Below are positions 17,187 through 58,435 of a stretch of 64,000 bases of DNA, piece by piece. The number at the start of each line of letters is the position of its first letter. The stretch's first letter is position 1. The translations under genes and the position numbers were made by a program. Below the pieces are notes generated by a model, which had not been told where the DNA came from, did no database searches, and saw nothing but the letters and a program-made list of their open reading frames with translations. Origin of the DNA: Arenibacter algicola (GTDB lineage: Bacteria > Bacteroidota > Bacteroidia > Flavobacteriales > Flavobacteriaceae); contig NZ_JAHKPO010000003.1 of the NCBI RefSeq assembly GCF_018860365.1, forward strand, positions 806,001-870,000, in the 5' to 3' direction.

Positions 17187-17210
17187 TGGGTAATCTTAAT
17201 TTTAGGGGGG

Positions 17211-19778: not shown

Positions 19779-19810
19779 TTGAGCTTTAATTTTTCTAAGG
19801 TATTATTGAT

Positions 19811-30874: not shown

Positions 30875-30884
30875 AAATATTAAG

Positions 30885-35255: not shown

Positions 35256-35327
35256 ATGATTTGTCCACAAAAAAGAATAATGAAAGAAGCTTTTCAATTT
35301 CAAGGTAGAAAAATATACAGTTTAGTT

Positions 35328-37727
35328 ATGAAGACAAATAGCGCTGCCAAGGCCAAGGCAATAGTTTTGGGTTTTTGTTTTATGTTCTTTTTCCATTACA
35401 GTGCAATAGCCCAGACGTCAAATTCGGGAATTGCGGGCAGCGAGGGGAATAACAATAAATTATGGTACCTGGAGCCTGCGGCCAATTGGATGGAGGCCCT
35501 TCCCATTGGTAATGGTAAACTTGGAGCCATGGTTTTTGGCGGCGTTGAACAGGAAAAACTTCAGCTAAATGAGGAGTCCGTTTGGGCAGGTCCACCAATT
35601 CCTGAAAATAGGGTAGGAGCCTATAAATCCGTTGAAAAGGCCAGGGAGTTAATTTTCCAGGGTGATTATGCGGAAGCCAATAAACTGGTACAGGATGATG
35701 TAATGGGACCACGGATAGCCCCTAGAAGTTATCAGACATTGGGCGATCTCATCCTGAATTTTGAATTGAAAGGTACTCCTTCAAATTATAGGAGGGAACT
35801 GGACATCAATAACGCCATTGCAAAAACAAGCTTTACTGCAGACGGTGTAAACTACACTAGGGAATATTTTAGCAGTGCTATAGATGATGCCATAGTTGTG
35901 GTGATAACGGCAGACCGGCCCAAATCCATTTCTTTGGAACTGGAAATGCAGCGCAAGGCCGATTTTGAAGTGGCCAATATAGGAAAGAATAGGTTAAAAA
36001 TGTGGGGCCAGGTAAGTCAGAAAGGCAAGCATTTGGGAGTGAAATATGAAACCCAGATTATGGCCTTGCCTAAAGGAGGGGGTGTAAAATCGGGCAATGG
36101 CACCCTTTCCATAAGCAAGGCCAATTCGGTTGTACTTATAATTTCGGCTGCTACGGATTATAATGCAGCATCACCTTTTTCCCCATTGACCCAAAATTTA
36201 AGCACAGTTTGTGCTACTAAATTGAAGAAGGCGGCAAAAAGGTCCCTCAAAAAACTGAAAGAAGATCACATTGCGGATTATCAAAAGTTTTTTAATAGGG
36301 TTGCTATTGATCTTGGTGAAATTAAGGGCGAGGAAAGACCTACCAATGAGAGATTGGAAGCGGTTGCCAAGGGAGCCGATGATCCTGGTTTAATGGCCTT
36401 ATATTTTCAATATGGACGTTATTTGTTAATTTCTTCCTCTAGGCCTGGAAGCTTGCCTGCAAACTTGCAAGGTATTTGGAACGATCATTTGGCTGCACCG
36501 TGGAATAGTGACTACCACACCAATATAAATATGCAGATGAATTATTGGCCAGCAGAGGTGACCAACCTTTCGGAGTGCCATGAACCTTTTTTCGATTTTA
36601 TTGAAAGTTTGGTGCCAGCCGGTAAAAAGACGGCCAAAGAAGTATATAATAGTGATGGCTTTGTGGTACATCATACCACAGATGTATGGCATTGGACCTC
36701 ACCAATTGGAAAGGTGCAATACGGAATGTGGCCCATGGGTGGTGCCTGGTGTACGCGTCACTTTATGGAGCACTATAATTTTAACGGGGATACAGCATTC
36801 TTAAAAGATCACGCTTACCCCATTATGAAGGAGTCGGCTAAATTTCTTTTGGATTGGTTAACTAAGGATCCTAGATCCGGTAAATTGGTTTCAGGTCCGT
36901 CCACATCTCCGGAGAATAAATTCTATACCCCAAAGGATCCAGAGGTGTTCGCCAATTTGGACATGGGCAATGCCATGGATCAGGAAATAATCTGGGACAA
37001 TTTCACCAATGTTCTGGAAGCTGCGGAAATACTTAAAATAGAGGATGAATTTGTGGAAAGGGTAAAAGATGCCCTTGCCAATCTTTCCTTGCCTAAAATT
37101 GGCTCGGACGGCCGTCTCATGGAGTGGTCCCAAGAGTTCGAGGAAGTGGATAAGGGGCATCGACATTTGAGTCATTTGTACGGTCTTTACCCAGGAAATC
37201 AGTTTACAGAGAACAAGACCCCTTATTATATAGATGCTATAAACAGGAGTATAGAACACCGTATTTCCAACGGTGGTGGGCATACCGGATGGAGTAGGGC
37301 GTGGATAATCAATTTTTATGCACGCTTGGGCAACTCCGAAAAGGCCTATGAAAATATTAAGGCCCTTTTGGCTAAATCCACGGCCAATAACTTGTTCGAT
37401 TACCACCCTCCATTTCAGATTGATGGAAATTTTGGGGGAACGGCAGGTATTGCAGAGATGCTGATGCAGAGCCATGAAACAGATCAAAGTGGTACTACTA
37501 TTATTAACCTATTGCCTGCATTGCCATCGGAATGGTCCACAGGTAGTGTTTCCGGTTTAAAGGCCAGGGGAGGTTATGAAGTGGATATTGTATGGAGCAA
37601 TGGAGCTTTGGAGTCCGTATCGCTAGTGTCCAAAGAGGCTAAAGTGTGTAAGCTGCGAATTGGGGATAAGATCATTGATGTTGAATTGACGGCTGGGGCA
37701 AAACAAACAATAACTGAATTTAAATAA
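35328..37727 (+). CDS. GH95 alpha-L-fucosidase-like enzyme (His type)
   Basis: Secreted inverting GH95 enzyme, about 799 aa from the ATG at 35328 (MKTNSAAKAK), which gives a signal peptide ending SAIAQ. An ATG at 35256 abutting the GH2 stop would add 24 residues without a better signal. In numbering from 35256, the catalytic Asn423 and Asn425 lie in YHTNINMQMNYWPA, the general acid Glu623 in RLMEW, and Asp723 in FQIDGNFG, matching the Asn/Asn/Glu/Asp set of the Bifidobacterium enzyme AfcA. His421, two residues before the first Asn, is the form found in alpha-L-fucosidases. It sits between GH2 (72 bp upstream) and a second GH95 (11 bp downstream). Confidence 0.94.
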   Translation: MKTNSAAKAKAIVLGFCFMFFFHYSAIAQTSNSGIAGSEGNNNKLWYLEPAANWMEALPIGNGKLGAMVFGGVEQEKLQLNEESVWAGPPIPENRVGAYKSVEKARELIFQGDYAEANKLVQDDVMGPRIAPRSYQTLGDLILNFELKGTPSNYRRELDINNAIAKTSFTADGVNYTREYFSSAIDDAIVVVITADRPKSISLELEMQRKADFEVANIGKNRLKMWGQVSQKGKHLGVKYETQIMALPKGGGVKSGNGTLSISKANSVVLIISAATDYNAASPFSPLTQNLSTVCATKLKKAAKRSLKKLKEDHIADYQKFFNRVAIDLGEIKGEERPTNERLEAVAKGADDPGLMALYFQYGRYLLISSSRPGSLPANLQGIWNDHLAAPWNSDYHTNINMQMNYWPAEVTNLSECHEPFFDFIESLVPAGKKTAKEVYNSDGFVVHHTTDVWHWTSPIGKVQYGMWPMGGAWCTRHFMEHYNFNGDTAFLKDHAYPIMKESAKFLLDWLTKDPRSGKLVSGPSTSPENKFYTPKDPEVFANLDMGNAMDQEIIWDNFTNVLEAAEILKIEDEFVERVKDALANLSLPKIGSDGRLMEWSQEFEEVDKGHRHLSHLYGLYPGNQFTENKTPYYIDAINRSIEHRISNGGGHTGWSRAWIINFYARLGNSEKAYENIKALLAKSTANNLFDYHPPFQIDGNFGGTAGIAEMLMQSHETDQSGTTIINLLPALPSEWSTGSVSGLKARGGYEVDIVWSNGALESVSLVSKEAKVCKLRIGDKIIDVELTAGAKQTITEFK

Positions 37728-37738
37728 TATTTACAAGG

Positions 37739-40174
37739 ATGAACGGCAATCATATTGGGAAGGTGTTGGCTCTTTTTTTTCTATTGTCCCTAGTAGGATG
37801 CGATCAAAAGGAAAAGAAAGTTGAAAACAATAAATTGGTGCTATGGTATAAATCCCCTGCAAAGAAATGGACAGATGCCTTTCCATTGGGTAATGGTCAA
37901 TTAGGGGCAATGTGCTACGGAGGTACCGATGTGGAACGCTATCAGCTTAACGAAAAAACGTTGTGGGCCGGTAGTCCCAGCAATCCCTATGCGGAGGACT
38001 ATTATGGCAAATTGCAAAAGATCCAAGGGTTGATATTGGCCGGAGATAAAATGGAGGCCAATAACTATGGATTGGAAAATATGGGGGCAGCCCCTGCCTC
38101 CTTCAGATCATATGAGCCTTTGGCCGATTTACTGATAAGTTTTGAGGCACATGATTCCGTTCAGAATTATAAGCGGGAATTGGATTTGACCCGTGGAATA
38201 CACAAGGTATCCTATAAGACGCCCGACTCAGAAATAATACGGGAATCCTTTATTTCTGCGGTAGACAACGCATTATATGTTCGAATAGTAGCCAAAGGTA
38301 AGACGAAGATAAATTGTAGTATTGGATTGGAACGTGCTAAAGATGCAATCATTAAGGCGTTGCCAGATGGATTGCTACACATGGATGGGCAAATAGTGGA
38401 TATTGAAGCCCCTATGGCCCATGATGAAAATGCCGGTGGATCGGGTGAAGGTGGAGAGCATATGCGTTTTGCAGCTCGAGTGAAAACTGAAGTTGTAGGA
38501 GGTAGTGTTGTGCCCAATGAAGATAGGTTGATAGTGAAGAATGCTGATGAACTTATTATAAAATTGACTGCTGCGACCGATTATAATTTGTCCAAGTTGA
38601 ATTTTGACGACACTATAGATCCAGCTGTATTGGCCAATGAAAATCTTAATAAAGTGATTGCTACCTCTTGGGAACATTCGAAAAAGGCGCATGTGAAAGA
38701 CCATAGCAGTATGTTTGGTCGTGTTGCGCTGGACTTGGGTAGTTCCACTAAAGATTCACTCCCTACAGACGAGCGATTATTGGCTTATAAGGAGGAAGCT
38801 CAAGATCCAGGACTGGAGGCACAATTGTTTCAGTTTGGAAGGTACTTGCTTATGGGGAGTTCGCGTTCCAATGCTGTACTTCCAGCAAACCTACAGGGTG
38901 TATGGAGTGAGAGAATGTGGGCGCCATGGGAAGCGGATTATCATTTAAATGTAAACCTGCAGATGAATTATTGGCCTGCAGATGTGACCAATATTTCGGA
39001 AACTTTGGATCCCTTGGTCAATTGGTTCGAGCTAATTGCCGAAACTAGTAAGCCTTTGGCAAAAGAAATGTACGGTTCCGATGGTTGGTTTTCTCATCAT
39101 GCCTCAAATCCGTTCGGGAGGGTAACCCCTTCTGCATCTACTTTTGCCTCCCAATTTAACAATGGCGTTTTGGATGCGCTTCCAGGAGCCTGGATGGTAA
39201 TGAATTTGTGGGACCACTATGAATTTACCCAGGATAAGGAGTTTCTTAAAAATAGACTTTATCCCTTGCTATCGGGAGCCAGTGAATTTATTCTGGATGT
39301 TTTGGTTGAAGATTCAGAAGGAGTGCTGCATTTTATGCCATCTTCATCCCCAGAGAACCAATACAGGGATCCAGCCACAGGGGAAATGTTGCGAATTACT
39401 TCCACTTCTACCTATCACTTATCAATAATTAAAGCGGTATTTAATGCCACCTTGGAAGCGGCATCTATTTTAGGGGAGAAGAATGATATGTCTGACCGTT
39501 TAGTTAAAGCACAAAACGCATTGCCAGATTTTCCTGTTGATCCAGAGAATGGTAGACTTATGGAATGGCGTCAGCCTTTGGAAGAAAAGGAGCCAGGCCA
39601 CAGACACCTTTCCCATTTGTTAGGGTTGCATCCATTTTCATTGATTACAAACGAAACGCCGGAGCTTTATAAAGCTGCCCGTAAAAGTTTGGAATGGAGA
39701 GAGCAAAACGGTCAAGGAGGAATGGGATGGGCCTATGCCCATGGCTTGTTGATGCACGCCAGATTGTTGGAAGGGGAAAAGGCCCATAAGAGTGTGGTGA
39801 CCTTACTTTCAAAAGGTAAAAAGTCCAGCTTGATGAATACGATAGGACCTTTTCAAATTGATGGTAATTTAGGAGCTACTGCAGGAATTGCCGAAATGCT
39901 GATTCAAAGCCATATGAAAGATGAAAATGGTGATTTTGTTATTCATTTATTGCCCGCGATACCTACAGATTGGTCCAATGGCAAGGTTTCTGGGTTAAAA
40001 GCGCGAGGTAATTTTGAGGTAGATATGGAGTGGAGTTATGGAAAATTGACTTCGGTATTGTTGTATTCAAAGAATGGAGGCTCTTGCAGTGTAAAAGCCG
40101 GAGATAAGATGTTGAAGATAACATTGAAAGCGGGAGAGAAAAAGGAATTGACCCTCGAAACAATAAGTAAATAG
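37739..40174 (+). CDS. GH95 alpha-L-fucosidase-like lipoprotein (His type)
   Basis: Second GH95 of this operon, 811 aa, with a lipoprotein signal LSLVGC (Cys21) in contrast to the cleavable signal of its neighbour. Catalytic residues are Asn404 and Asn406 in YHLNVNLQMNYWPA, Glu609 in RLMEW, and Asp708 in FQIDGNLG. His402 occupies the fucosidase-type position. The start of the mature protein, LWYKSPAKKWTDAFPLGNGQLGAM, is the usual GH95 opening. The sequence differs widely from the upstream GH95, including a Gly-rich loop at about 230-241 (NAGGSGEGGEH) before the catalytic barrel, so the two probably act on different linkages or sulfation contexts. It starts 11 bp after its neighbour and ends at a strong terminator. 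Confidence 0.94.
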   Translation: MNGNHIGKVLALFFLLSLVGCDQKEKKVENNKLVLWYKSPAKKWTDAFPLGNGQLGAMCYGGTDVERYQLNEKTLWAGSPSNPYAEDYYGKLQKIQGLILAGDKMEANNYGLENMGAAPASFRSYEPLADLLISFEAHDSVQNYKRELDLTRGIHKVSYKTPDSEIIRESFISAVDNALYVRIVAKGKTKINCSIGLERAKDAIIKALPDGLLHMDGQIVDIEAPMAHDENAGGSGEGGEHMRFAARVKTEVVGGSVVPNEDRLIVKNADELIIKLTAATDYNLSKLNFDDTIDPAVLANENLNKVIATSWEHSKKAHVKDHSSMFGRVALDLGSSTKDSLPTDERLLAYKEEAQDPGLEAQLFQFGRYLLMGSSRSNAVLPANLQGVWSERMWAPWEADYHLNVNLQMNYWPADVTNISETLDPLVNWFELIAETSKPLAKEMYGSDGWFSHHASNPFGRVTPSASTFASQFNNGVLDALPGAWMVMNLWDHYEFTQDKEFLKNRLYPLLSGASEFILDVLVEDSEGVLHFMPSSSPENQYRDPATGEMLRITSTSTYHLSIIKAVFNATLEAASILGEKNDMSDRLVKAQNALPDFPVDPENGRLMEWRQPLEEKEPGHRHLSHLLGLHPFSLITNETPELYKAARKSLEWREQNGQGGMGWAYAHGLLMHARLLEGEKAHKSVVTLLSKGKKSSLMNTIGPFQIDGNLGATAGIAEMLIQSHMKDENGDFVIHLLPAIPTDWSNGKVSGLKARGNFEVDMEWSYGKLTSVLLYSKNGGSCSVKAGDKMLKITLKAGEKKELTLETISK

Positions 40175-40230
40175 TGGGGTATATGTTTTAAAAGCCTTGG
40201 AAAGGGCTTTCTTATAAAGTGTTTAAACAA

Positions 40231-40268
40231 AAAAGGGACTGTCTTTTAAGGCAGTCCCCTTTTTTTTG
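40231..40268 (+). terminator. Rho-independent terminator after the GH2-GH95-GH95 operon
   Basis: GGGACTG (40235-40241) pairs with CAGTCCC (40252-40258), extended by flanking A/T pairs (AAAA...TTTT), with eight T residues after. It lies about 60 bp beyond the GH95 stop codon. Confidence 0.88.
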
Positions 40269-40596: not shown

Positions 40597-42105
40597 TTAT
40601 TGGGTATTTTTTACCGTTAGGTTAAGTTGTTTTCCAGTTTCATCTATGGTCTCGAAAATAAGCTGTGCCGATTTGCCATTTTCAGGTGGTGTTACCTTCA
40701 CCAAGATGAAGCCACCCGTAGGCTCTACCTGAATATAAGGTTGTTTTATTAGCCCTAAGGGGTCGGTAGAATTAGGGTCGCCAGGTTTTCTGCCATGTCT
40801 GGAATTCTGTCCATTTATAGATCCCGTACCAAATTCTTCAAAACCAGCTGGATGGATGGAGTGATACTGCCAATGACGATCGCCGGTTATAATATAAAAA
40901 TTCTTATCAAGATTATTTTTCTTTAGCCAGTGGAAAAAGGCGTCACGCTCGTTTTGAAAACCACCATAGCTTACATGATTATCGTGTTTGGAGGCATCAT
41001 CGGGCCCAACGAGGGGTGAGGCTACAATAAAGAGCTTAAAGGTGGCGTCGCTCGCTATTAGCGATTCCTTGATCCACTCTAGCTGTTCCTTGCCCCAGAT
41101 AGATTTGTGGGGACCATCTGGTTTATCATTGGGATCCCTATAATCCCTCCCTTCAGGCATCCAGATCTGTAGGTGTTTGTTTACTTGTCGGGTACGGTAT
41201 GTAACTGGCTTTTCGTCCTCAGGGGCAGCAATAGGAGCTTGTTCCAAAAAAGTGGCCCTGGCCGTCTGTGGGGAAGGCTCCTTACCATTCTCTACATTGT
41301 CGCTATCATTGTATCTATATTCGTGGTCGTCCTTCATTAAATAGACGGGCACATGTCGCAAAAAACTTTCCATACGTGGCATACCCAACTGTCTGTGCCA
41401 CTTGGACCGCAATTCGGGAAGTGTTTTTGCAATGCCTTTATTTGGGTAATCGTAATAGACCGTATCACCTGTCTGTACCCAGAAGGCCGGTTTTAGATTT
41501 TTCATGACTTCCAAGGCAGGATATCCCAGTTTTCGGTCTTCACCTTCAGCGGCCCTACTCTTACTTCCCGCTCTTTGTACTCCTCCTCCCAAGAAAAATT
41601 TGCCCAGATTTAAACATGAAGTCACCACAAAAGAGGTAGGCTTTTCCGAACCCAAGGATTGGAGGGTGCTAAATTCACTTACAGGACCTTTCTTGGTACG
41701 GGACGCATTGGGACCGTAGTGTACACGAACATAATATTGGGTGTCCGCCTTAAGCCCATCGATCCGAAACTTGATTATAAAATCCCGGTCCGAAGTGGCC
41801 TGCAACCATGGTGATACATCTGAATTCTTAAACTTGGGGTTATCTGCGATTTCAAATTTGGCCGTTCCCTCTGCTCCCGGAATGTCGAACGATAAAAGCG
41901 CCTCTGCCGTATCAAAACCATTTTCGGGCATCTTGTTGGTAACCGTTAATCTGGTCTGTAAAATGGCAGAGGTTTGGGTAACTTCTCCTATCATTTGAGG
42001 AAAACTGTACATTGAGGGTTTGGCATCCATAAATTCCCAGGAGGGCTTAAACGACAGAGCCGTGACTCCAGCTCCGGATAATTTTATAAAATTTCGACGT
42101 CTCAT
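40597..42105 (-). CDS. PhoD-like Tat-exported metallophosphoesterase
   Basis: Alkaline-phosphatase-D-family protein of 502 aa. The start is placed at the ATG at 42105, because MRRRNFIKLSGAG is a textbook twin-arginine signal; the frame extends 43 codons further but those residues look non-coding. An Ig-like PhoD_N domain covers about 30-150 (DTQYYVRVHYG), followed by a metallophosphoesterase core: SCLNLGKFF, QTGDTVYYDYPN, LMKDDHEYRYND, and ITGDRHWQYHS. It should be a calcium/iron-dependent phosphomonoesterase or diesterase in the periplasm. It ends the probable seven-gene operon, 110 bp after the sulfatase at 42216. Its presence in a sulfatase operon may reflect phosphate scavenging, or activity on a modified sugar; neither is shown by the sequence. 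Confidence 0.9.
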   Translation of the reverse strand: MRRRNFIKLSGAGVTALSFKPSWEFMDAKPSMYSFPQMIGEVTQTSAILQTRLTVTNKMPENGFDTAEALLSFDIPGAEGTAKFEIADNPKFKNSDVSPWLQATSDRDFIIKFRIDGLKADTQYYVRVHYGPNASRTKKGPVSEFSTLQSLGSEKPTSFVVTSCLNLGKFFLGGGVQRAGSKSRAAEGEDRKLGYPALEVMKNLKPAFWVQTGDTVYYDYPNKGIAKTLPELRSKWHRQLGMPRMESFLRHVPVYLMKDDHEYRYNDSDNVENGKEPSPQTARATFLEQAPIAAPEDEKPVTYRTRQVNKHLQIWMPEGRDYRDPNDKPDGPHKSIWGKEQLEWIKESLIASDATFKLFIVASPLVGPDDASKHDNHVSYGGFQNERDAFFHWLKKNNLDKNFYIITGDRHWQYHSIHPAGFEEFGTGSINGQNSRHGRKPGDPNSTDPLGLIKQPYIQVEPTGGFILVKVTPPENGKSAQLIFETIDETGKQLNLTVKNTQ

Positions 42106-42215
42106 AGATTTAAATTTCAACTTTGTTGAGTGATTGCACTGGACCCTGAATTTTTTCTTACTTAATAAGTGGCCCAAGGAAGAGAAATGTGGGTGTGAAA
42201 TAGATTTTAAGGGTC

Positions 42216-43745
42216 CTATTTCAAATTCTCCCAAATGGGACCTTCATCCCTAATTTCCTTCCATTGTTCCATCATAAGAGGTTGTAATTTACTTATGATT
42301 TCGGGTTCAAGATCTGCTAGATCATTTTTTTGCTCTGGATCTGTGGATAGGTCATATAAGGAAAATTTTACAGGAACGGAGGTTTTCATCCATTCCATTA
42401 ATGTATCGCTATCCGATTTCTCAGGTAACCAACCCAATAGGGTATAATCGTTATAGCGCAAGGCCATATGGGGCATTCTAAAATAGGTGTCCTCATGGGT
42501 GGGAAATATCCATAAATAGGGCTTGTTTCTTTCTGTCTTTTGGCCTAAAAAGGCAGGAAATGCATTTGTGCCGTCCAAATTTACACCGCTAGGTACATTT
42601 ACTTGAGCTAGTTCGGATATCGTGGTCAAGAAATCAGTTGCCACCACCAATTCGTTACTGGTAGTTCCTGCAGGAATTTTTCCTGGATAGCGCACAATAC
42701 CGGGAACCCTATGGCCTCCTTCATAAGGGTATCTTTTCATGCCCCTGAAATTACCAGGAGTTCCAAAACAAAAATCCCTAGTAGGTGCTTCCCATTCTCC
42801 TTTGGATTCTTCAAAGTTTACCGGATGTTCCGGACCGTTGTCACTGGTAAAAATAACCATTGTGTTATCCTTCAAGTTTTCCTGATCTACCGTTTTCATT
42901 AAATTGGCAAAGGCATTATCCAATTGAGAAATGGTACCGTAATACTCTTTTTTGTTCTGGCTAATATCATACTCAGGTCTATCAACATCTCCGTATTTAA
43001 TTGTGTGTTCCAAGGAGTCGACTGTGCTGTTGTTGTAAACGTTACTGTATTCTTCAGGAGGCGACAACGGAGCGTGTGGCTCGTGGGTAGAAACTATAAG
43101 GAGGAAAGGTTTGTCCTTGTCCCTTTTGTTGGTAAGCCAGTCTGTGGCTTCCTCTGTAAGTACGTCACAATACCAACCATCAACCTCACCCACCGCTTCG
43201 CCGTTTCTAATGAATTTGGTGAAATTTTTAGGACCTTCATAAGCATTATGGGTAGAGGCAAACCAATAGTCAAAGCCTTGATCCCCTGGACTGGGTTCTT
43301 TTATCTTTTCTGATTCCTCTAATCTTGATAAGTGCCATTTCCCCATAAAGGCTGTTTCATAGCCTCCAGATTTTAGCATTTCGGCAATGGTGGTTTCGCT
43401 ATCCCTTAGATGTGCTCCCTTGTAACCCTGTAGGTAATAAATTCCACTTCTATAGGGGTGTCTACCTGTTAAAAGTCCGGCTCTTGACGGTGAGCACACA
43501 GTTCCGGCAGAATGGCAATCGGTTAGCAAAACTCCTTCCGAGGCAAACTGGTCTATTGCAGGAGTCTTGGTAATGGGGTTGCCGTAGCAGCCCAAATCCC
43601 CGTAACCCATGTCATCGGTTAAATAAATAATGATATTGGGTTTTAAGACCTTCTTGTCGGTAGTATTGTCATTTTTAGATTTGCAACCCATCATTGCAGT
43701 CGCACAAAGAAATATGTAGCTAATTAATTTTATTCTTTTCATCAT
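42216..43745 (-). CDS. S1-family sulfatase lipoprotein, tandem copy A
   Basis: Sulfatase of 509 aa from the ATG at 43745 (MMKRIKLIS); the next codon, also ATG, is equally possible. The frame opens at 43817 but those residues overlap the upstream gene. The lipobox is AMMGC (Cys21). Asp-Asp lies in [14 protein letters not shown], the formylglycine Cys84 in CSPSR followed by AGLLTG, then GKWHLSR and FTSDNGPEHPVN. It is a close paralogue of the next gene upstream: long blocks such as DCHSAGTVCSPSRAGLLTG and EVDGWYCDVLTEEAT are identical, which points to local duplication. The intergenic gap is 40 bp. Both copies keep every motif needed for activity, so both are probably functional. Confidence 0.94.
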   Translation of the reverse strand: MMKRIKLISYIFLCATAMMGCKSKNDNTTDKKVLKPNIIIYLTDDMGYGDLGCYGNPITKTPAIDQFASEGVLLTDCHSAGTVCSPSRAGLLTGRHPYRSGIYYLQGYKGAHLRDSETTIAEMLKSGGYETAFMGKWHLSRLEESEKIKEPSPGDQGFDYWFASTHNAYEGPKNFTKFIRNGEAVGEVDGWYCDVLTEEATDWLTNKRDKDKPFLLIVSTHEPHAPLSPPEEYSNVYNNSTVDSLEHTIKYGDVDRPEYDISQNKKEYYGTISQLDNAFANLMKTVDQENLKDNTMVIFTSDNGPEHPVNFEESKGEWEAPTRDFCFGTPGNFRGMKRYPYEGGHRVPGIVRYPGKIPAGTTSNELVVATDFLTTISELAQVNVPSGVNLDGTNAFPAFLGQKTERNKPYLWIFPTHEDTYFRMPHMALRYNDYTLLGWLPEKSDSDTLMEWMKTSVPVKFSLYDLSTDPEQKNDLADLEPEIISKLQPLMMEQWKEIRDEGPIWENLK

Positions 43746-43785
43746 CAATTTGGAGGGGTTCTGTATTAAGGCGATTTTGTACAAA

Positions 43786-45321
43786 TTACTTGGACTTTCC
43801 CCAATCTGGTCCCTCATCCCTAATGTCTTTCCATTGTTCCAACATCAAAGGCTTTAATTTGTTTACCACTTTCGGCTGTGATTCGGCCAAGTCATTTTTT
43901 TGTTCGGGATCGGTAGATAGATCGTAGAGTGCGAATTTTTCGGGAACGGACGACTTCATCCAATCAATGAGGTTGCTACCGTCTTTGTTTTCAGGAAACC
44001 AACCTAGAAGGGTGTAATTGTTATAGCGCATGGCCATATGTGGCATTCTGAAATAGGTGTCTTCATGAGTTGGAAAAAGAAATAAATAGGGCTTGTCCCG
44101 CTTCGTTTTTTCACCGAGAAATGCTGGAAAGGCATCTATGGCGTCTAAAGTTATATCGCTAGAGGTATTTACATTGGCTAGTTTGGCGGCGGTAGTAATA
44201 AAATCTGTCCCTACTACAAATTCATCGCTAGTGGTTCCGGCGGGAATTTTACCGGGATAGCGTACTATACCAGGTACCCGGTGTCCACCTTCATAAGGAT
44301 ATCGTTTCATGCCTTTATAAATTCCGGGAGTTCCAAAGGACATATCGCGAATCGGGTCTTCCCATTCTCCTTTTGATTCTTCCAAGTTTACGGGGTGTTC
44401 AGGGCCATTGTCGCTGGTAAAAATGACCATAGTATTGTCGGTCAGGTTTTCTTTGTCCACCGTCTTCATTAAATTACCAAAGGCGTCATCCAATTGTGAA
44501 ACGGTGCCGTAATATTCTTTTTTATTTTGGGTAATATCATATTCTGGTCGCGCTACCCCGCCATAACTGATCGATTTTTCTAAACTGTCCACCTCGGCAT
44601 TGTTGTACATCTCGCTGTATTTTTCGGGAGGTGCAATTGGAGTGTGGGGTTCGTGGGTAGAAACAATGAGTAGGAACGGTTTGGATTTGTCCCTGATATT
44701 GCTAAGCCAATTGGTGGCCTCCTCGGTAAGTACATCACAATACCAACCATCTACTTCCCCTACAGCTTCCCCGTTCCTGATAAATTTCCCAAAATTTTTG
44801 GGACCTCCAAAAGCATTATGGGTAGAGGCGAACCAATAATCAAACCCTTGGTCGCTTGGACTCGGCTCATCGTATTTTTCGCTTTTTTCCAATCTGGATA
44901 GGTGCCATTTCCCCATAAAGGCGGTTTCATAGCCACCGGACTTTAGCAGTTCGGCTATGGTAACTTCATCTTTCTTCAAATAAGCTCCATAAGCTCCCTG
45001 AATATAATAAAAACCACTTCTATAAGGGTTTCTGCCCGTTAATAGGCCGGCTCTTGAAGGGGAACATACGGTTCCAGCAGAATGGCAATCGGTCAACAAA
45101 ACCCCTTCCGAGGCAAATTTATCTATTTCGGGTGTTTTTATAATGGGGCTTCCATAACAACCTAAATCCCCATACCCTAGATCATCCGTTAAGTAAATAA
45201 TGATATTGGGTTTCTTTTCTTCTTCTTTTTGAGGTGACTTCTCTTTACAGGAAGAAAAAAGAACAAGCAATGTAAATGTAAAGGTGAAAATTTGTAAAAT
45301 CTGTATACTTGATTTTCTCAT
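43786..45321 (-). CDS. S1-family sulfatase lipoprotein, tandem copy B
   Basis: Sulfatase of 511 aa from the ATG at 45321 (MRKSSIQIL); an earlier ATG at 45360 adds 13 residues before the signal. The lipobox is VLFSSC (Cys25). Motifs are LTDDLGYGDLGCYG, Cys86 in CSPSR followed by AGLLTG, GKWHLSR, and FTSDNGPEHPVN. It matches copy A (42216-43745) through most of its length, the differences being concentrated in the signal peptide and the C-terminal subdomain. It lies 84 bp after the symporter gene in the same operon as an L-sugar-type GH95 and two dehydrogenases, suggesting a sulfated form of the same sugar as substrate. That link is inferred. Confidence 0.94.
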   Translation of the reverse strand: MRKSSIQILQIFTFTFTLLVLFSSCKEKSPQKEEEKKPNIIIYLTDDLGYGDLGCYGSPIIKTPEIDKFASEGVLLTDCHSAGTVCSPSRAGLLTGRNPYRSGFYYIQGAYGAYLKKDEVTIAELLKSGGYETAFMGKWHLSRLEKSEKYDEPSPSDQGFDYWFASTHNAFGGPKNFGKFIRNGEAVGEVDGWYCDVLTEEATNWLSNIRDKSKPFLLIVSTHEPHTPIAPPEKYSEMYNNAEVDSLEKSISYGGVARPEYDITQNKKEYYGTVSQLDDAFGNLMKTVDKENLTDNTMVIFTSDNGPEHPVNLEESKGEWEDPIRDMSFGTPGIYKGMKRYPYEGGHRVPGIVRYPGKIPAGTTSDEFVVGTDFITTAAKLANVNTSSDITLDAIDAFPAFLGEKTKRDKPYLFLFPTHEDTYFRMPHMAMRYNNYTLLGWFPENKDGSNLIDWMKSSVPEKFALYDLSTDPEQKNDLAESQPKVVNKLKPLMLEQWKDIRDEGPDWGKSK

Positions 45322-45405
45322 AATGGGGACTATTTTAGGAGTATATTTTTGGAACATCAATTTTTTTAGAGCTATTATTTTGGGAATTGTAAATACTAAA
45401 AGTGA

Positions 45406-47019: not shown

Positions 47020-47020
47020 A

Positions 47021-47983: not shown

Positions 47984-47989
47984 ACTTTT

Positions 47990-49027
47990 TTAATTTTTTA
48001 CTACAATCTTAATATCATCTATGGAATCTGAAGCTTTTTGCAAGGCTTCAGGTATTTCGTCAAAAGGAAATCGATTTGTAATTATTTTGGTAAGGTCTAT
48101 TTTTTGTTGCTCCAAAAGCTCAATGGCCAATGAATATTCCTGGTTAAAACGAAAGGAAGATTGAAAGGTGAGTTCATTTTTCATAAAAGCCGAAAATGGG
48201 AACTGGGCATTGTCGTGATGCATACCCAATTGAACTACTTTACCTCCCTTTTTAATGAACTTGATCGTATTGGTAAGAATACTGCTGGCTCCTGATGCTT
48301 CCAATAAAATATCAAATCCATCTGGGGCTATGGCAAATAAATCTTCCTCAAAATCTGGCTCCTTTGGATTTAAGGCTGCTGTTACCCCTATTTCCATTGC
48401 TTTTTGCAGGGCAGCCGTTCTTATATCCGTAATTACAATTGGTTGGGATGTATATAGGGCGGCTGCCATATGGCAAAGTTGGCCAATGGTACCTGCCCCG
48501 GTAATAAGAACCGATTTTCCTTTTAGATCGCCAGCTATGGTAAGGGCATGCAGAACAACCGAGAGTGGTTCCAATAATGCAGCCATTTCAAAACTTATAA
48601 AATCCTTTAAGGGTACACAGTTTTCGGCAGGGATCTTAATATACTCTGAAAAGCCACCATTAAGATGGGGAAAAACACTTGCCGATCCCAAGTACTTCAT
48701 GGAAGGACATAAGTTTTGTTTTCCTGCTTTACAATGAATACAGGTTTTACAAGGTCTGGATGGGTTAATGCTTACCCTGGTTCCATTTTTTAGCATGGGA
48801 AACAAAGAAGATTCTTTTTCTATTTCTCCTGAAAGTTCATGACCAAGGGCAAAGGGTGCTTTGGGAATGAAATCGCCAATTTTACCATCTTTATAATAAT
48901 GGATATCCGAACCACAGATACCCACCGACCTTACCTTTACGATAACTTCATTCTCGGCAGTATCCTCCGGGTAGGGGATATCGGAATACCTTACATCCTT
49001 TTTTCCGTACAACAAATATGATTTCAT
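47990..49027 (-). CDS. Zinc-dependent medium-chain alcohol dehydrogenase, candidate L-galactonate or polyol dehydrogenase
   Basis: MDR-family dehydrogenase of 345 aa. Catalytic zinc ligands are Cys38 in GICGSD, and His63 and Glu64 in GHE. Structural zinc ligands are Cys93, Cys96, Cys99 and Cys107. The Rossmann motif is GAGTIGQL. It belongs to the sorbitol, L-idonate 5- and L-galactonate 5-dehydrogenase group rather than to ethanol dehydrogenases. Its start codon overlaps the GH95 stop by 4 bp (ATGA), a strong sign of translational coupling with that glycosidase. In an L-galactose pathway it would oxidise L-galactonate to D-tagaturonate after the aldo/keto reductase. The family is firm; the substrate is a hypothesis. 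Confidence 0.9.
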   Translation of the reverse strand: MKSYLLYGKKDVRYSDIPYPEDTAENEVIVKVRSVGICGSDIHYYKDGKIGDFIPKAPFALGHELSGEIEKESSLFPMLKNGTRVSINPSRPCKTCIHCKAGKQNLCPSMKYLGSASVFPHLNGGFSEYIKIPAENCVPLKDFISFEMAALLEPLSVVLHALTIAGDLKGKSVLITGAGTIGQLCHMAAALYTSQPIVITDIRTAALQKAMEIGVTAALNPKEPDFEEDLFAIAPDGFDILLEASGASSILTNTIKFIKKGGKVVQLGMHHDNAQFPFSAFMKNELTFQSSFRFNQEYSLAIELLEQQKIDLTKIITNRFPFDEIPEALQKASDSIDDIKIVVKN

Positions 49028-51486
49028 ATCTCCTTTATGGTGTAAGTTTTACCCTTTACAGTGCTAAATTCTATTATTTTATTAGGACGTTTTTTAACAC
49101 TGATAGGTTTTCCGTCCAAGAATACTTTTACCTTGTTATTGGTTTTTAATCTAAACCGTTCACCAGCTTTGGAAAGTACTTTGGTAGAGGTAAGTTCTTT
49201 GTTTTTCCAACTGAAATCCAGTTCAAATCCTCCTCTGGCGCATACTCCCTTAAATTCACCATCTGACCATTCGGTAGGAAGTGCAGGTAGTAATTCTATA
49301 TAGCCTTCATGGGATTGGATAAGCATTTCGGTAATTCCGGCTGTGACACCAAATGAACCATCTACTTGTAAGGGTTTGCCACATTTTGCAAAAAGTGAAG
49401 CATAACATTGCTCCTTTAAATATCCTTTGAAAATAGAGTTGGCCCTATCCCCGTCATTTAAACGGGCCCAAAGCGACATTTTCCAGCCTCTTGAAAAACC
49501 GGTACCACCGTCACCTCGCTGTTCCAATACCTTTTTAACGGGTTCAATAAAATCGGGCGTACGGACAGGGGAAATAACATTCCCGGGATAAAGGCCATAA
49601 AGGTGGGAGAAATGACGATGCTTGTCTTCCATTTGTTCATAATCCTCTGTCCATTCTTGAAGCATGCCGTCCCTGCCTACTTGAGAGGGTGGGAAGCGGT
49701 CTCTGGCTGCAAGTACGGCTTTGGCATACTCACCGTCTTTTTTCAATATTTTGGAGGCTTCTCCGTAATAGGCGAATAAATCTTTAAGTATTTGCATATC
49801 CATGGTGGCACCTGCTACTATGGTGGTGAAATAGTACATTCCGGTCACTTCATCATAGAAGTATTCATAACCCTTTCCTTTTGGGGGATTCTCTGGGGAA
49901 TTGGATGGATTGGTAACCAACCAGTCCTTCCCTGGATATTCCACTAGGAAATCCATAAAAAAATCGACCGACCCTTTAATAATGGGATATACCTCTTTTA
50001 AATATTCTTTGTCCTGGGTAAACAGATAATGCTCCCACAGGTGGGTAGTTAACCATGCACCGCCCACGGTATAAGTACCCCAGGTTGGTCCGTCCATAGG
50101 GGCAGCAACCCTCCATAGATCGGTGTTTTGATGAAAGACCCAGCCACCGGCTCCGTAGTGCTCCTTGGCTACTTCAGCTCCTTGGTCTGTAAGTTCTTTT
50201 ACCATAGTAATTAAAGGCTCTGAAAACTCGGATAAATTGGCGGTTTCAACAGGCCAGTAATTCATTTCGGTATTTATGTTGGTAGTGTATTTTGAATCCC
50301 AGGCCGGGTTCATGTCATTGTTCCATATGCCCTGAAGGTTGGCGGGCTGGGTTCCAGGTCTGGAAGAGGCTATTAGAAGATATCTACCAAAATTATAACA
50401 AAGGGTAGCCAATTGTGGATCCGGATCAGTTTGTATCTTGGACATACGCTCGTCCGTTGTCAAATACGAATTATCAGTAGTAGGAAGTGTCAGGGAAACC
50501 CTGTCATAATATTCTTTGTGGTCCTCAACGGCACTTTGTTTAATGTTTGTAAAGGAACTACCTTCCAAATCGGCCATCATTTTCTCTACTCTGGCATGTT
50601 CGTCGGCACTGACATCCTTATAATTGATGAAGTTTGTAGCGGCTACAAAATAAAGGGTAACGGCATTGGCGTTTTCAATCTTTAGTCTACTACCTTTTAG
50701 AGTCATACTGCCTCCTTCGGGAAGGGCTTTTATTCTTGCCTCGTATTTTAATTGACCATCAACTCCCAGGTAATCGGCAGACTTACCGGTTAGCTTCAAT
50801 TGGTTATTTCCTAAGCCGTCCATTCGAAAGTAGTCGGTGGCATAGTTGGAGTGGGAGTTGTTTCTGACCCCTCTCAATTCGGCATCCAATGAAATGCTTC
50901 CTGCTTTGTCAGCGGATATACGTACCGCAATGGTCTGGTCAATGGCGGAAGCAATTATTTCCCGCGTGTAGTTGATACCGTTGGCCTTATATTTAACCGT
51001 AGCGATTCCTGTTTTCAGGTCAAGGGACCTACTGTAGTTGGTTACGCTGTCTTGGCCGAAAAAAAGATGCAGGTTGGCCATGGACTGATACTTCTGTTGC
51101 TCCACAGGGTATCCCATAAGAGCACGACCAAATAGCTTATGGGCCTCTATAGGTTTACCTTCAAAAATGTATTTTTGAATTTTGGGCAGTTCTTTGTATC
51201 CTCCTTTTACTACAGTTGAATAAGGGCCTCCCGTCCAATAGGTCTCCTCATTGAACTGAATTTTTTCCTCTCCATATTTTCCATAAACCATAGCGCCCAA
51301 CCGACCATTGCCAACAGGAAGTGCTTCCTCCCAAATAGCAGCAGGTTCATCGAACCACAACGTATTGGCGGGATCAATTTTTTGGCCGCTCGCTGGTAGG
51401 TTTGTCGTCGAATTCCCGGGAGATTGGCCAAAAAGCTGAGCTCCCACAAAAACAATCGAAAATAATAGTTTGGATTTTAAGTGCAT
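49024..51486 (-). CDS. GH95 enzyme of the Thr type, candidate alpha-L-galactosidase
   Basis: Secreted GH95 of 820 aa with a signal peptide ending QLFGQ (about residue 21). Catalytic Asn403 and Asn405 are in KYTTNINTEMNYWP, the general acid Glu611 in LQEW, and Asp709 in LQVDGSFG. Residue 401, two before the first Asn, is Thr instead of the His of fucosidases; as I recall, this change marks alpha-L-galactosidase activity in a Bacteroides enzyme because it makes room for the C6 hydroxyl. It heads a probable seven-gene operon and overlaps the zinc dehydrogenase by 4 bp. It is a close paralogue, of the same length, of the GH95 at 55973. The GH95 call is firm; the specificity is a prediction. Confidence 0.92.
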   Translation of the reverse strand: MHLKSKLLFSIVFVGAQLFGQSPGNSTTNLPASGQKIDPANTLWFDEPAAIWEEALPVGNGRLGAMVYGKYGEEKIQFNEETYWTGGPYSTVVKGGYKELPKIQKYIFEGKPIEAHKLFGRALMGYPVEQQKYQSMANLHLFFGQDSVTNYSRSLDLKTGIATVKYKANGINYTREIIASAIDQTIAVRISADKAGSISLDAELRGVRNNSHSNYATDYFRMDGLGNNQLKLTGKSADYLGVDGQLKYEARIKALPEGGSMTLKGSRLKIENANAVTLYFVAATNFINYKDVSADEHARVEKMMADLEGSSFTNIKQSAVEDHKEYYDRVSLTLPTTDNSYLTTDERMSKIQTDPDPQLATLCYNFGRYLLIASSRPGTQPANLQGIWNNDMNPAWDSKYTTNINTEMNYWPVETANLSEFSEPLITMVKELTDQGAEVAKEHYGAGGWVFHQNTDLWRVAAPMDGPTWGTYTVGGAWLTTHLWEHYLFTQDKEYLKEVYPIIKGSVDFFMDFLVEYPGKDWLVTNPSNSPENPPKGKGYEYFYDEVTGMYYFTTIVAGATMDMQILKDLFAYYGEASKILKKDGEYAKAVLAARDRFPPSQVGRDGMLQEWTEDYEQMEDKHRHFSHLYGLYPGNVISPVRTPDFIEPVKKVLEQRGDGGTGFSRGWKMSLWARLNDGDRANSIFKGYLKEQCYASLFAKCGKPLQVDGSFGVTAGITEMLIQSHEGYIELLPALPTEWSDGEFKGVCARGGFELDFSWKNKELTSTKVLSKAGERFRLKTNNKVKVFLDGKPISVKKRPNKIIEFSTVKGKTYTIKEI

Positions 51487-55972: not shown

Positions 55973-58435
55973 CTATAGTCCTGCTATTGTATAGGTTTTT
56001 CCTTTTGTGGTTTTGAATTCCACAATACCGTTCTTAAGTTTTTTTACCTTGATTTGCTGGCCATCCGAATATACTTTTATTTTTTTGTCCGTTTTTAGGT
56101 TGCATGGCATACCTGCTTTGGATAAAATCTCCAAGGATGTCAGAGCTTTGTTCTTCCAGCTAAAATCGAGTTCAAAACCTCCTCTGGCACAAACACCATC
56201 AAAATGTCCATCGGCCCATTCGGAGGGTAGTGCGGGTAACAGGTCTATATACCCCTCATGTGATTGAAGCAGCATTTCGGTAATTCCCGCTGCTACACCT
56301 AAAGAACCGTCCACTTGAAACTGTCTTGCACATATGGCAAATAGTGAAGGAAAACATTGCTCCTTTAGATAGCCTTTAAAAACTTTATTGGCTCTGTCGC
56401 CATCTCCTAAGCGTGCCCATAGGTTGGTTTTCCATGCTCTTGACCATCCTGAGGCTCCATCACCCCTTAGTTCCAATACTTTTTTAACTGGTTCTATTAA
56501 TTCGGGAGTCTTGTTTACGGAAATTACCTTTCCGGGATATAGCCCATACAAATGCGAAGCATGCCTATGGTTTTTCTCCATTTGACCATAATCTTCCGTC
56601 CATTCCTGAAGGGTTCCGTCTTTACCAATTTGAGAGGGTACCAGGCGTTTTCTTGCTTCAAGAACCTTTTTTGCAAAGTCAGCATCCTTGCCCAGGATTT
56701 CCGAAGCAGATCCGTAATAGCTAAACAGGTCTTTTAAAACTTGCATGTCTATAGTAGATCCTGCGGCAATGGTAGTAAAGTAATACATTCCTGTTATTTC
56801 ATCATAGAAATATTTATATCCTTTTCCCTCTGGTGGGTTTTCCGGGGAATTTGACGGATTGGTTACCAGCCAGTCTTTTCCAGGGTATTGTACTAAGAAA
56901 TCCATAAAAAATTCAACTGAACCTTTCATGACCGGGTATATTTCTTTCAAATATTCCTCATCTTGCGTAAAGAGGTAGTGTTCCCACATGTGGGTGGTAA
57001 GCCAAGCTCCCCCAACCGTAAAAGTACCCCATGTTGGGCCATCCATTGGCGCGGCAGTTCTCCATAGATCGGTGTTCTGATGAAAGACCCAGCCGCTGGC
57101 ACCGTAATGTTCCTTAGCAACCTGGGAACCTTGATCCGTTAGTTCCTTTATCATAGTGGTCAAAGGCTCTGAAAGTTCCGAAAGGTTCCCCGATTCAACC
57201 GCCCAATAGTTCATTTGGATGTTGATGTTGGTGGTGTACTTTGAATCCCAAGCCGGATTCATATCATTGTTCCATATCCCCTGTAAGTTGGCAGGTTGGG
57301 TACCTGGTCTGGAAGAGGAGATCAAAAGATACCTTCCAAAATTATAGCATAGTGAAGCCAACTGTGGGTCTGGGTTGCTTTGGGAATTGGTCAAACGTTC
57401 ATCTGTTGGTAAAAAAGAACTTGAAGTGGTTGGCAAGTTTAAGGTAACCCTGTCAAAGAAATTCTTGTAATCGGTTAAGGCATCTTCCTTGATTTTGGTA
57501 AAGGTGTTTTTCTCCAATTTCGCCAGCATTTCTGCAACTCGAGCCTGTTGGTCGGCACTTACGTCCTTATAATTCACAAAATTAGTGGCAGCTACAAAAT
57601 AGAGGGTTACGGCATCCGCATTCTTTATACTTAGAATAGTGTCGTCCATATCCATGCTACCACCCTCTGGATAGGCTTTGATCTGTGCCTCGTACTTTAA
57701 TTTTCCTTCAATGCCAAGATAATCGGCCGATTTCCCTGTGAGTCTTAATTGACCGTTTCCAATACCGTCCATTTGAAAATAGTCTGTGGCATAGTTGGAG
57801 TGGGCGGAATTTCTGACTCCACGTAGTTCGGCATCAAATGAAATACTACCAGGTTTATCTGCTGTAATGCGGATGGCGATGGTTTGGTCTATGGCAGAGG
57901 CAAATACCTCTTTGGTGTAGTTTACATTGTTCACGGCATAGGTGTCCGTAACAATACCAGTTTTTAGGTCCAGAGATCTTTTGTAATTTTCCACACTATC
58001 ATTGCCAAAGAACAAATGTAAATTGGCCATGGATTGGTACTTCATTTGTTCCACGGGGTATCCCATCATGGTGCGCCCAAAGAGCTTATGGGCTTTGATA
58101 GGTTCCCCGTTAAATATTAGTTTCTGAATCTCAGGAAGATGCTTGTAACCTCCTTTAACCACGCTATTGTATGGGCCTCCTGTATAATAGGTATCTTCAT
58201 TGAATTGTATAATTTCTTCTCCATATTTACCGTATACCATGGCGCCTAGGCGTCCGTTTCCCACAGGAAGGGCCTCTTCCCATTTGCTTGCAGGTTGATT
58301 GTACCAAAGTACTGTGGCAGGATCAAAAGAAGCCTGGCCGGTTTTGGACAGCTGGTCTTGATTTGTGTTGTTTTGGGCAATCAAAAAATTCCCCATAAGG
58401 AAGATTGCACAGAGTGTTAGTTTTTTTAAATTCAT
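55973..58435 (-). CDS. GH95 enzyme of the Thr type, second copy, candidate alpha-L-galactosidase
   Basis: Secreted GH95 of 820 aa with a signal peptide ending FLIAQ (residue 21). Catalytic residues are at the same numbers as in the GH95 at 49024: Thr401, Asn403 and Asn405 in KYTTNINIQMNYW, Glu611 in LQEW, and Asp709 in FQVDGSLG. Long stretches are identical to that protein (for example PANLQGIWNNDMNPAWDSKY and KDWLVTNPSNSPENPP). This points to duplication, yet the surroundings differ: this copy follows an M60 peptidase gene by 115 bp and ends in its own terminator. Loop residues after NYW differ (AVESGNL versus PVETANL), which may tune subsite use. Family firm; L-galactose specificity predicted. 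Confidence 0.92.
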   Translation of the reverse strand: MNLKKLTLCAIFLMGNFLIAQNNTNQDQLSKTGQASFDPATVLWYNQPASKWEEALPVGNGRLGAMVYGKYGEEIIQFNEDTYYTGGPYNSVVKGGYKHLPEIQKLIFNGEPIKAHKLFGRTMMGYPVEQMKYQSMANLHLFFGNDSVENYKRSLDLKTGIVTDTYAVNNVNYTKEVFASAIDQTIAIRITADKPGSISFDAELRGVRNSAHSNYATDYFQMDGIGNGQLRLTGKSADYLGIEGKLKYEAQIKAYPEGGSMDMDDTILSIKNADAVTLYFVAATNFVNYKDVSADQQARVAEMLAKLEKNTFTKIKEDALTDYKNFFDRVTLNLPTTSSSFLPTDERLTNSQSNPDPQLASLCYNFGRYLLISSSRPGTQPANLQGIWNNDMNPAWDSKYTTNINIQMNYWAVESGNLSELSEPLTTMIKELTDQGSQVAKEHYGASGWVFHQNTDLWRTAAPMDGPTWGTFTVGGAWLTTHMWEHYLFTQDEEYLKEIYPVMKGSVEFFMDFLVQYPGKDWLVTNPSNSPENPPEGKGYKYFYDEITGMYYFTTIAAGSTIDMQVLKDLFSYYGSASEILGKDADFAKKVLEARKRLVPSQIGKDGTLQEWTEDYGQMEKNHRHASHLYGLYPGKVISVNKTPELIEPVKKVLELRGDGASGWSRAWKTNLWARLGDGDRANKVFKGYLKEQCFPSLFAICARQFQVDGSLGVAAGITEMLLQSHEGYIDLLPALPSEWADGHFDGVCARGGFELDFSWKNKALTSLEILSKAGMPCNLKTDKKIKVYSDGQQIKVKKLKNGIVEFKTTKGKTYTIAGL

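What the first reader, a model, noticed from the sequence alone, without database searches (positions are those of the whole stretch)
35328..58435. Four GH95 enzymes split into His-type and Thr-type active sites
All four GH95 proteins keep the catalytic Asn-x-Asn, Glu and Asp. Two residues before the first Asn, the copies at 35328 and 37739 have His (YHTNIN, YHLNVN), while those at 49024 and 55973 have Thr (YTTNIN in both). From memory, the His belongs to alpha-L-fucosidases such as Bifidobacterium AfcA, and Thr at this site was linked to alpha-L-galactosidase activity in a Bacteroides GH95. One locus would then process both L-fucose and L-galactose, which differ only by the C6 hydroxyl.
Basis: partly seen in the sequence, partly recalled or inferred. 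Interest (0 to 1): 0.75.

Follow-up and report, generated by a model that had tools for sequence, protein, structure and literature searches.

The report
GH95 enzyme beside likely L-galactose genes
A marine bacterium's gene cluster for eating a sulfated sugar polymer has four related sugar-cutting enzymes; the one-letter difference that was noticed does not reveal which sugar they cut, but the genes beside one of them suggest it frees the rare sugar L-galactose.

Summary
In detail: four full-length GH95 proteins; A and B carry His, C and D carry Thr, two residues before the catalytic Asn-x-Asn. The inference from that residue fails. XacAfc95 has the same Thr, is strict for L-fucose, and T395H does not change its preference; a second Thr-type fucosidase is known (both in print, 2021). 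In my Bacteroidota sample Thr is the commoner state (39 of 71). On a tree His/Thr changes once, with L-galactosidase 4UFC and L-fucosidases 7KMQ and 8ZBV on the Thr side.

L-galactose survives on other evidence for C. Its gene heads an operon GH95-ZnADH-AKR-symporter-sulfatases, conserved in some marine Flavobacteriia. The AKR falls in the L-galactose dehydrogenase superclade; LguA, grouped by its authors with known members, is inactive on L-fucose. In four other Bacteroidota genomes with such an AKR a Zn-ADH lies within 2.3 kb. The genome also encodes FucI and candidate later steps.

Against simple assignment: C and D belong to a GH95 clade lacking the His thought to contact sugar O4 (63 of 64 representatives), and C has Phe for the stacking Trp. 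I favour L-galactose for C (about 0.5); D is open. Nothing was assayed; the structure prediction did not finish.

The parts
35256..37727 (+). GH95 A, His-type (start may be 35328); pocket residues as in the fucosidases (His421; HPPFQIDGN loop; TGW)
37739..40174 (+). GH95 B, His-type, lipobox-like LVGC signal; lacks the His at the FucOB-693 position (TIGPFQIDGN)
49024..51486 (-). GH95 C, Thr-type, first gene of the operon C-ADH-AKR-SSF; no His at the FucOB-693 position (KCGKPLQVDGS), Phe in place of the stacking Trp
55973..58435 (-). GH95 D, Thr-type, 74% identical to C; no His at the FucOB-693 position (ICARQFQVDGS), Trp kept
47990..49027 (-). Zn-dependent dehydrogenase (L-idonate 5-DH-like, 303 bits, below that model's cut-off of 469); candidate L-galactonate dehydrogenase
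47021..47983 (-). aldo/keto reductase of the L-galactose dehydrogenase superclade
45406..47040 (-). sodium:solute symporter (SSF), candidate monosaccharide importer
43786..45360 (-). sulfatase downstream of the operon core
42216..43817 (-). second sulfatase of the run
40597..42234 (-). PhoD-like phosphatase, end of the run
32745..35255 (+). GH2 glycosidase upstream of GH95 A and B
27497..32558 (+). SusC-like TonB receptor and SusD-like protein (behind ECF sigma 25284-25874 and FecR 26279-27334)
58551..61205 (-). M60-like peptidase with F5/8 domain next to GH95 D
3666..25195 (.). left arm: six sulfatases, GH78-type rhamnosidase, GH27-type melibiase with SASA esterase domain, GDSL/S9 esterase, one protein without Pfam hit

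Best explanation
A sulfated-glycan utilisation locus of an Arenibacter strain encodes four exo-acting GH95 glycosidases with four different sugar pockets. The His/Thr residue marks an old split of GH95 and does not set the sugar. A looks like an ordinary alpha-L-fucosidase. C most likely releases an alpha-L-galactosyl residue (perhaps after the sulfatases act); the SSF symporter imports the sugar, the AKR oxidises it to L-galactonolactone, a lactonase-type enzyme encoded elsewhere (C25) may open it, a Zn-ADH oxidises L-galactonate to D-tagaturonate, and UxaB/UxaA-type enzymes elsewhere in the genome lead to KDG. L-fucose from A would enter the separate FucI route. Shown: gene content, order, conservation, family placement. 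Inferred: every catalytic step and the substrate.
For: Operon: 8 of 77 C/D-like loci (76-93% identity to C or D) have the AKR ortholog downstream followed by SSF; in 6 of the 8 the ADH lies between. None of the other 69 has the ortholog, though several of those contigs are short. 13 of 26 flavobacterial-clade AKRs on contigs over 5 kb share the contig length with a listed C/D-type GH95 (the lists are capped). AKR: the five best PDB hits are all L-galactose dehydrogenases at 229-194 bits, the next is at 92; in a 53-row tree it lies in the GalDH superclade (99/96), three alphaproteobacterial AKRs outside. LguA, which its authors place with plant GalDH and BVU_0219, uses L-galactose and shows no activity on L-fucose (PMC12632266, passages and Discussion). 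In 4 of 4 other Bacteroidota genomes with a close match a Zn-ADH lies within 2.3 kb (adjoining in 2), and a lactonase-type amidohydrolase in 3 of 4; L206 has a window-type ADH. On the three best-matching plasmid records the AKR lies with an amidohydrolase and a Zn-ADH; Catenovulum adds mannitol-dehydrogenase-family and altronate-dehydratase-family genes, GH2, PhoD and sulfatases; Paenibacillus adds a Thr-type GH95 about 7 kb on. Own genome: FucI and tagaturonate reductase over cut-off, UxaA-family and lactonase-family genes below theirs.
Against: The AKR is only 36-39% identical to the solved GalDHs compared and forms a sister clade, so its sugar is not proven. The ADH is missing in 2 of the 8 operons and only 26-29% identical to the ADHs near the AKRs on the plasmid records read. 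A second genome of the same genus (G324) lacks the AKR. Lactonase-type and UxaA/B genes are not in the locus; the lactonase scores 273 against a cut-off of 400. The Catenovulum mannitol-dehydrogenase-family gene fits the fructuronate reductase model better than tagaturonate reductase. The C25 cluster could serve L-fucose oxidation instead. C/D lack the His and C the Trp that the known L-galactosidase 4UFC keeps. In one search the +1 loop of C (DGPTW) reads like the fucosidase 7KMQ (DGAQW), not like 4UFC (DFAAAG). The wider C/D clade lacks the AKR ortholog and is often beside a DPP-IV peptidase.
Confidence: 0.5

Rival explanations
1. All four GH95 enzymes are alpha-L-fucosidases acting on one fucose-rich sulfated glycan at different linkages; the AKR is an L-fucose dehydrogenase of an oxidative L-fucose route with the C25 lactonase-type and dehydratase enzymes.
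For: Most characterised GH95 enzymes are fucosidases (PMC10154630, passages), Thr-type ones included (PMC8245568). The C25 cluster Zn-ADH + UxaA family + lactonase-type gene (best model L-fucono-1,5-lactonase, below cut-off) could be a fuconate route. The AKR is a sister, not a member, of the solved GalDH group.
Against: The genome has a true L-fucose isomerase (1068 bits, cut-off 775), so L-fucose has its own route. LguA, placed with known GalDHs, is inactive on L-fucose. The Phyllobacterium AKR next to a fuconolactonase-type gene falls outside the superclade.
Confidence: 0.25
2. C and D belong to a GH95 clade with a sugar of its own: not plain L-fucose or L-galactose as seen in crystals, but one substituted or differently configured at C3/C4 (for example sulfated, methylated or acetylated there), possibly on glycopeptides.
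For: The His thought to contact O4 (FucOB H693, AfcA H760) is absent in 63 of 64 clade representatives and present in 60 of 71 other representatives; the stacking Trp is Phe in 44 of 64; the Asn two after the catalytic Asp is Ser/Thr/Ala in 64 of 64, a feature used to define the set. FucOB mutants in these loops were reported as critical for activity (PMC10063614), and PMC12282258 (passages) calls the His pair flanking the Trp conserved in GH95. At 51 clade loci outside the operon group, 15 of 88 neighbour proteins are DPP-IV-type peptidases, and D lies by an M60 peptidase.
Against: Catalytic Asn, Asn, Glu, Asp and His613 are kept. In the operon of C the GalDH-type AKR points to a simple hexose product. 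The same neighbour scan also shows 3 rhamnosidases, 3 sulfatases and SusD-like proteins. No structure or assay.
Confidence: 0.3
3. One reading: Thr at this site makes C and D alpha-L-galactosidases, His makes A and B alpha-L-fucosidases.
For: Thr370 of BACOVA_03438 contacts O6 of L-galactose and T370H abolishes activity on corn xylan (PMC4491172).
Against: XacAfc95 and Blon_2335 are Thr-type fucosidases; T395H changes no preference. Thr is the majority state in the sample and changes once on the tree, with both activities on the Thr side.
Confidence: 0.04

Closest known systems
BACOVA_03438 (PDB 4UFC), GH95 alpha-L-galactosidase of Bacteroides ovatus
   Same: Family, domains, catalytic residues, Thr in the O6 column
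   Different: Different clade (4UFC in a 19-row clade at 99, C/D in a 21-row clade at 100); 4UFC keeps the His, the Trp and DGN; it releases L-Gal from corn xylan
XacAfc95 (PDB 7KMQ), GH95 alpha-L-fucosidase of Xanthomonas citri
   Same: Thr in the same column, similar +1 loop
   Different: Strict for L-fucose, keeps His and Trp
AfcA and FucOB, His-type GH95 alpha-1,2-L-fucosidases
   Same: A shares the pocket set Trp, His, His, Trp, His with FucOB; B shares the first His
   Different: C and D differ from FucOB at the His/Thr position, the second His and the residue after DG, C also at the Trp; B lacks the second His
L-galactose routes of Phocaeicola vulgatus (BVU_0219/0222) and Luteolibacter LG18 (lguABCDEF), from PMC12632266
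   Same: GalDH-type enzyme and an L-galactonate dehydrogenase, then tagaturonate, altronate, KDG; candidates of each type exist in this genome
   Different: Here the first steps stand in one operon with a GH95 in a sulfatase-rich locus; the other candidates lie elsewhere; nothing assayed

Membership tests
GH95 | N-terminal sandwich, (alpha/alpha)6 catalytic and C-terminal domains | tested here: met
   all three Pfam models over cut-off in all four proteins
GH95 | Asn-x-Asn, Glu, Asp catalytic set | tested here: met
GH95 alpha-L-galactosidase | Thr in the O6-contacting column | tested here: met
   C and D; not diagnostic, since fucosidases share it
GH95 alpha-L-galactosidase | other -1 pocket residues as in 4UFC | tested here: not met
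   second His absent in C and D, Phe for Trp in C
GH95 alpha-L-galactosidase | release of L-galactose | not testable with these tools
   needs an assay
GH95 alpha-L-fucosidase (A) | pocket set Trp378, His383, His613, Trp655, His693 (FucOB numbers) | tested here: met
   A only; B lacks His693
L-galactose dehydrogenase (AKR) | falls in the GalDH superclade apart from other AKRs | tested here: met
   as a sister clade of the solved enzymes, rooted on long-branched paralogs
L-galactose dehydrogenase (AKR) | H[DN][VIL][ED][FY] motif shared by the superclade | tested here: met
   35 of 35 flavobacterial-clade members and 81 of 84 of the next group; in none of three alphaproteobacterial AKRs
L-galactose dehydrogenase (AKR) | activity on L-galactose, not L-fucose | not testable with these tools
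   needs an assay
Polysaccharide utilisation locus | SusC/SusD pair with degradative enzymes and a regulator | tested here: met
   ECF/FecR, SusC, SusD, GH2, GH95, sulfatases

The most novel reading that the evidence does not exclude
C and D represent an undescribed GH95 subfamily with a rebuilt -1 pocket (no second His, Ser/Thr/Ala two after the catalytic Asp, often Phe for Trp) and a sugar specificity not yet known in GH95; in marine flavobacteria one branch was joined in an operon to L-galactose oxidation, giving a dedicated route from a sulfated L-galactose-bearing glycan to KDG.
Probability: 0.3. Interest if true: 0.65.

Novelty: new variant of a known kind. Interest (0 to 1): 0.45.

Why it matters
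Enzymes that free L-galactose are scarce: the review I read passages of marks two GH95 enzymes as releasing L-Gal (PMC10154630). An operon that links a GH95 to a GalDH-type dehydrogenase gives a specificity marker that does not depend on one residue, and would point to marine sulfated glycans with L-galactose as food for Arenibacter and its kin. The clade of C and D also suggests that the annotation alpha-L-fucosidase covers enzymes whose pocket has lost residues reported as critical in FucOB. It further warns against annotating GH95 enzymes by the His/Thr residue.

Tried and rejected
Rejected: the His/Thr rule (contradicted in print and by the tree). Considered and left: that the 2+2 split is special (Thr 39, His 31 of 71). 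The sulfatase 43786-45360 was compared with solved sulfatases; the best hit was 3ED4, an arylsulfatase, and the exo-L-galactose-6-sulfatase 7LHA ranked far down, so it gave no substrate clue; the other sulfatases were not compared. The protein at 9457-11988 had no useful hit. An apparent ADH-AKR fusion in L206 was rejected on reading the frames: the two hits lie in different frames, so they are neighbours. G050, G243 and G315 have the contig lengths of L012, L079 and L015 and are not counted as independent. The residue letters printed are off by one column; only its loop strings and counts are used, the pocket residues come. The tree kept the His/Thr column (1 of 416), is a quick tree without bootstrap, and left out most rows with Glu for the catalytic Asp. 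In the AKR tree the outgroup was not one side of a branch and has long branches. In one search, 91 neighbour proteins were found at 51 of 77 loci (the operon group and loci with little flank were left out); 88 were scanned (3 long ones dropped for the size cap), and only the 25 commonest of 76 families are shown. In the GH95 sample I dropped partial low-scoring matches (under 40 bits), one locus (L191) that did not pass the HMM threshold and one 134-bit match with stop codons that I did not fetch. Of 1608 plasmid records with an AKR match (30 listed) I read the surroundings of 5 (H1, H2, H3, H5, H19); in the Roseibium record a D-mannonate oxidoreductase adjoins the AKR and a Zn-ADH lies 4 kb on. 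Literature searches on the Thr/His question; bacterial GalDH; Arenibacter; marine GH95 with L-galactose; a known GH95 subfamily like C/D: (listing only). I found no report of this operon in those listings; subscription papers are mostly not held. Papers read in passages without use for the argument: PMC5943477, PMC5698469, PMC6950322.
Full report
What is there. The window lies in a 5.75 Mb genome (G000) whose nearest named kin are Arenibacter: protein C is 94% identical to one of Arenibacter palladensis. The locus has ECF sigma factor and FecR, SusC and SusD, GH2, and four GH95 genes, with eight sulfatases inside the window and a ninth cut by its right edge. The ninth is whole when read with the next stretch of the contig. 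A GH78-type enzyme, a GH27-type enzyme with an esterase domain, a PhoD-like phosphatase and an M60 peptidase are also present.

Check of the observation. All four GH95 proteins are full length. The motifs are as stated: A YHTNIN, B YHLNVN, C and D YTTNIN, and the catalytic Asn-x-Asn, Glu and Asp are kept. Thr401 of C falls on Thr370 of BACOVA_03438 in a gap-free stretch (numbering from PMC4491172). A is 38-40% identical to the other three, B 35% to C and D, and C and D are 74% identical.

Does the residue report the sugar? No. PMC4491172 proposed the idea with a caution (passages). PMC8245568 then reported XacAfc95, with Thr, as strict for L-fucose, with no change of preference in T395H, and named Blon_2335 as a second Thr-type fucosidase (passages). 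PMC10063614 repeats this. In my sample, drawn by family search in 100 Flavobacteriaceae and 118 Bacteroidota genomes, the window's own in both, 71 distinct rows show Thr 39, His 31, Trp 1. On a tree of 89 rows, which adds solved structures and C/D-like loci, Thr is one side of a single branch (SH-aLRT 96), and that side holds 4UFC (L-galactosidase), 7KMQ (L-fucosidase) and 8ZBV (called alpha-L-fucosidase in the PDB). The residue is an old clade mark.

What sets C and D apart. They lie in a clade of their own (21 rows, 100). By FucOB numbering, His693 contacts O4 of fucose in a docked model, and mutants of the fucose-contacting loops were reported as critical (PMC10063614, section 8 part 1). 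It is missing in 83 of 84 clade rows and, after collapsing at 90% identity, in 63 of 64 representatives; 60 of 71 other representatives keep it. Near that site the loop may carry a one-residue insertion, so the firm statement is absence of His, with a Cys at or beside its place. Trp655 is Phe in 44 of 64 (C has Phe, D has Trp). The residue two after the catalytic Asp is Ser, Thr or Ala instead of Asn, which I used, with the Thr, to define the set. The other Thr-type representatives mostly keep the His (35 of 39). B also lacks this His; A has the canonical set. The four enzymes thus have four different pockets.

Genomic context of C. On the minus strand the order is GH95 C, Zn-ADH, AKR, SSF symporter, two sulfatases, PhoD. 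Among 77 loci with C/D-like genes from the genome collection, 8 have the AKR ortholog and SSF downstream (five Arenibacter, one Cellulophaga, one Kriegella, one uncultured flavobacterium), 6 of them with the ADH in between; none of the remaining 69 has the ortholog, though some contigs are short, and two have a distant AKR (27-29%) nearby. A search of 299 Flavobacteriaceae genomes at E 1e-90 found the AKR ortholog in 4, the window's own included; a second genome of the same genus lacked it.

What the AKR is. Its five best PDB hits are all called L-galactose dehydrogenase (229 to 194 bits), the next is at 92 bits. In a 53-row tree it lies in a superclade with the four I included (99/96), within a separate flavobacterial clade (100/99), at 36-39% identity to them. 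7LH6 is 76% identical to the AKR of a Bacteroides finegoldii cluster AKR, amidohydrolase, fucP, Zn-ADH; I take this cluster to be the counterpart of the P. vulgatus enzymes BVU_0219 and BVU_0222 cited in PMC12632266 as L-galactose and L-galactonate dehydrogenases (inference from gene types and spacing). That paper (abstract, passages, whole Discussion) reports that LguA, which clusters with plant GalDH and BVU_0219, works on L-galactose and L-glucose and not on L-fucose, and that LguD oxidises L-galactonate. In 395 Bacteroidota genomes, searched with the Paenibacillus AKR at E 1e-60, I found a match in 5, the window's included; each of the 4 others has a Zn-ADH within 2.3 kb (adjoining in L206 and L207) and 3 have a lactonase-type amidohydrolase. 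In L206 the neighbour is of the window's ADH type (40%). Among plasmid records, Catenovulum adriaticum has a mannitol-dehydrogenase-family gene, Zn-ADH, amidohydrolase, AKR, GH2, altronate-dehydratase-family gene, PhoD and sulfatases together, and Paenibacillus cellulositrophicus has amidohydrolase, AKR, Zn-ADH and, about 7 kb on, a Thr-type GH95. The Catenovulum mannitol-dehydrogenase-family gene fits the fructuronate reductase model better than tagaturonate reductase, both below cut-off.

The rest of the pathway. The genome has L-fucose isomerase (1068 bits, cut-off 775), tagaturonate reductase (666, cut-off 359) next to a UxaA-family gene, and a C25 cluster of Zn-ADH (47% to the Paenibacillus one), UxaA family and a lactonase-type gene (L-fucono-1,5-lactonase model, 273 bits, cut-off 400); the two UxaA-family genes score below the galactarate dehydratase cut-off. 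So L-fucose has its own route and candidates for the reaction types of an L-galactose route exist. The C25 cluster could also serve an oxidative L-fucose route, which keeps the fucose rival alive.

Against the L-galactose reading. The known L-galactosidase keeps His and Trp, C does not. The +1 loop of C resembles the fucosidase 7KMQ more than 4UFC (my reading). Away from the operon group, 15 of 88 neighbour proteins at 51 clade loci are DPP-IV-type peptidases and 6 are serine dehydratase alpha proteins; 3 rhamnosidases, 3 sulfatases and SusD-like proteins also occur, so part of the clade does sit in sugar loci, and AKR is not among the 25 commonest families shown. For D there is no catabolic neighbour in this window, although a D-like gene carries the AKR in Kriegella (L079).

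Verdict. Nothing here is an activity measurement. I rate it a new variant of a known kind: a GH95 clade with an altered pocket, one branch of which is tied to GalDH-type oxidation.

Noticed in passing
L178:7823-11407 (G000 contig C25): Cluster Zn-ADH, altronate/galactarate dehydratase family, L-fucono-1,5-lactonase-type amidohydrolase, near polysaccharide synthesis genes; an aldonate route for L-galactose or L-fucose.
   Followed up: partly
window 9457-11988 (minus): 843-residue protein with no Pfam, NCBIfam or significant PDB match, between a sulfatase and the GH78-type gene; a candidate unknown glycan-active enzyme.
   Followed up: partly
L031:12449-14698 and similar neighbours among the loci: Away from the operon group the C/D GH95 clade often lies beside a DPP-IV/S9 peptidase (15 of 88 neighbour proteins), and 6 are serine dehydratase alpha family proteins.
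   Followed up: partly
G000 contig C7 (L003, L166) and 13 of 71 non-C/D GH95 representatives: The first catalytic Asn is Asp (for example YHTDIN); the proposed amide base would be a carboxylate there.
   Followed up: no
G000 contig C19 (L007) and five similar rows: Very divergent GH95 homologs with FHHDLN or FHHNLN and Glu in place of the catalytic Asp.
   Followed up: no
window 52369-55425 (minus): Large protein with DUF6797 and cytochrome c domains between GH95 C and D; a homolog lies upstream of C in four Arenibacter loci (L008-L011).
   Followed up: no
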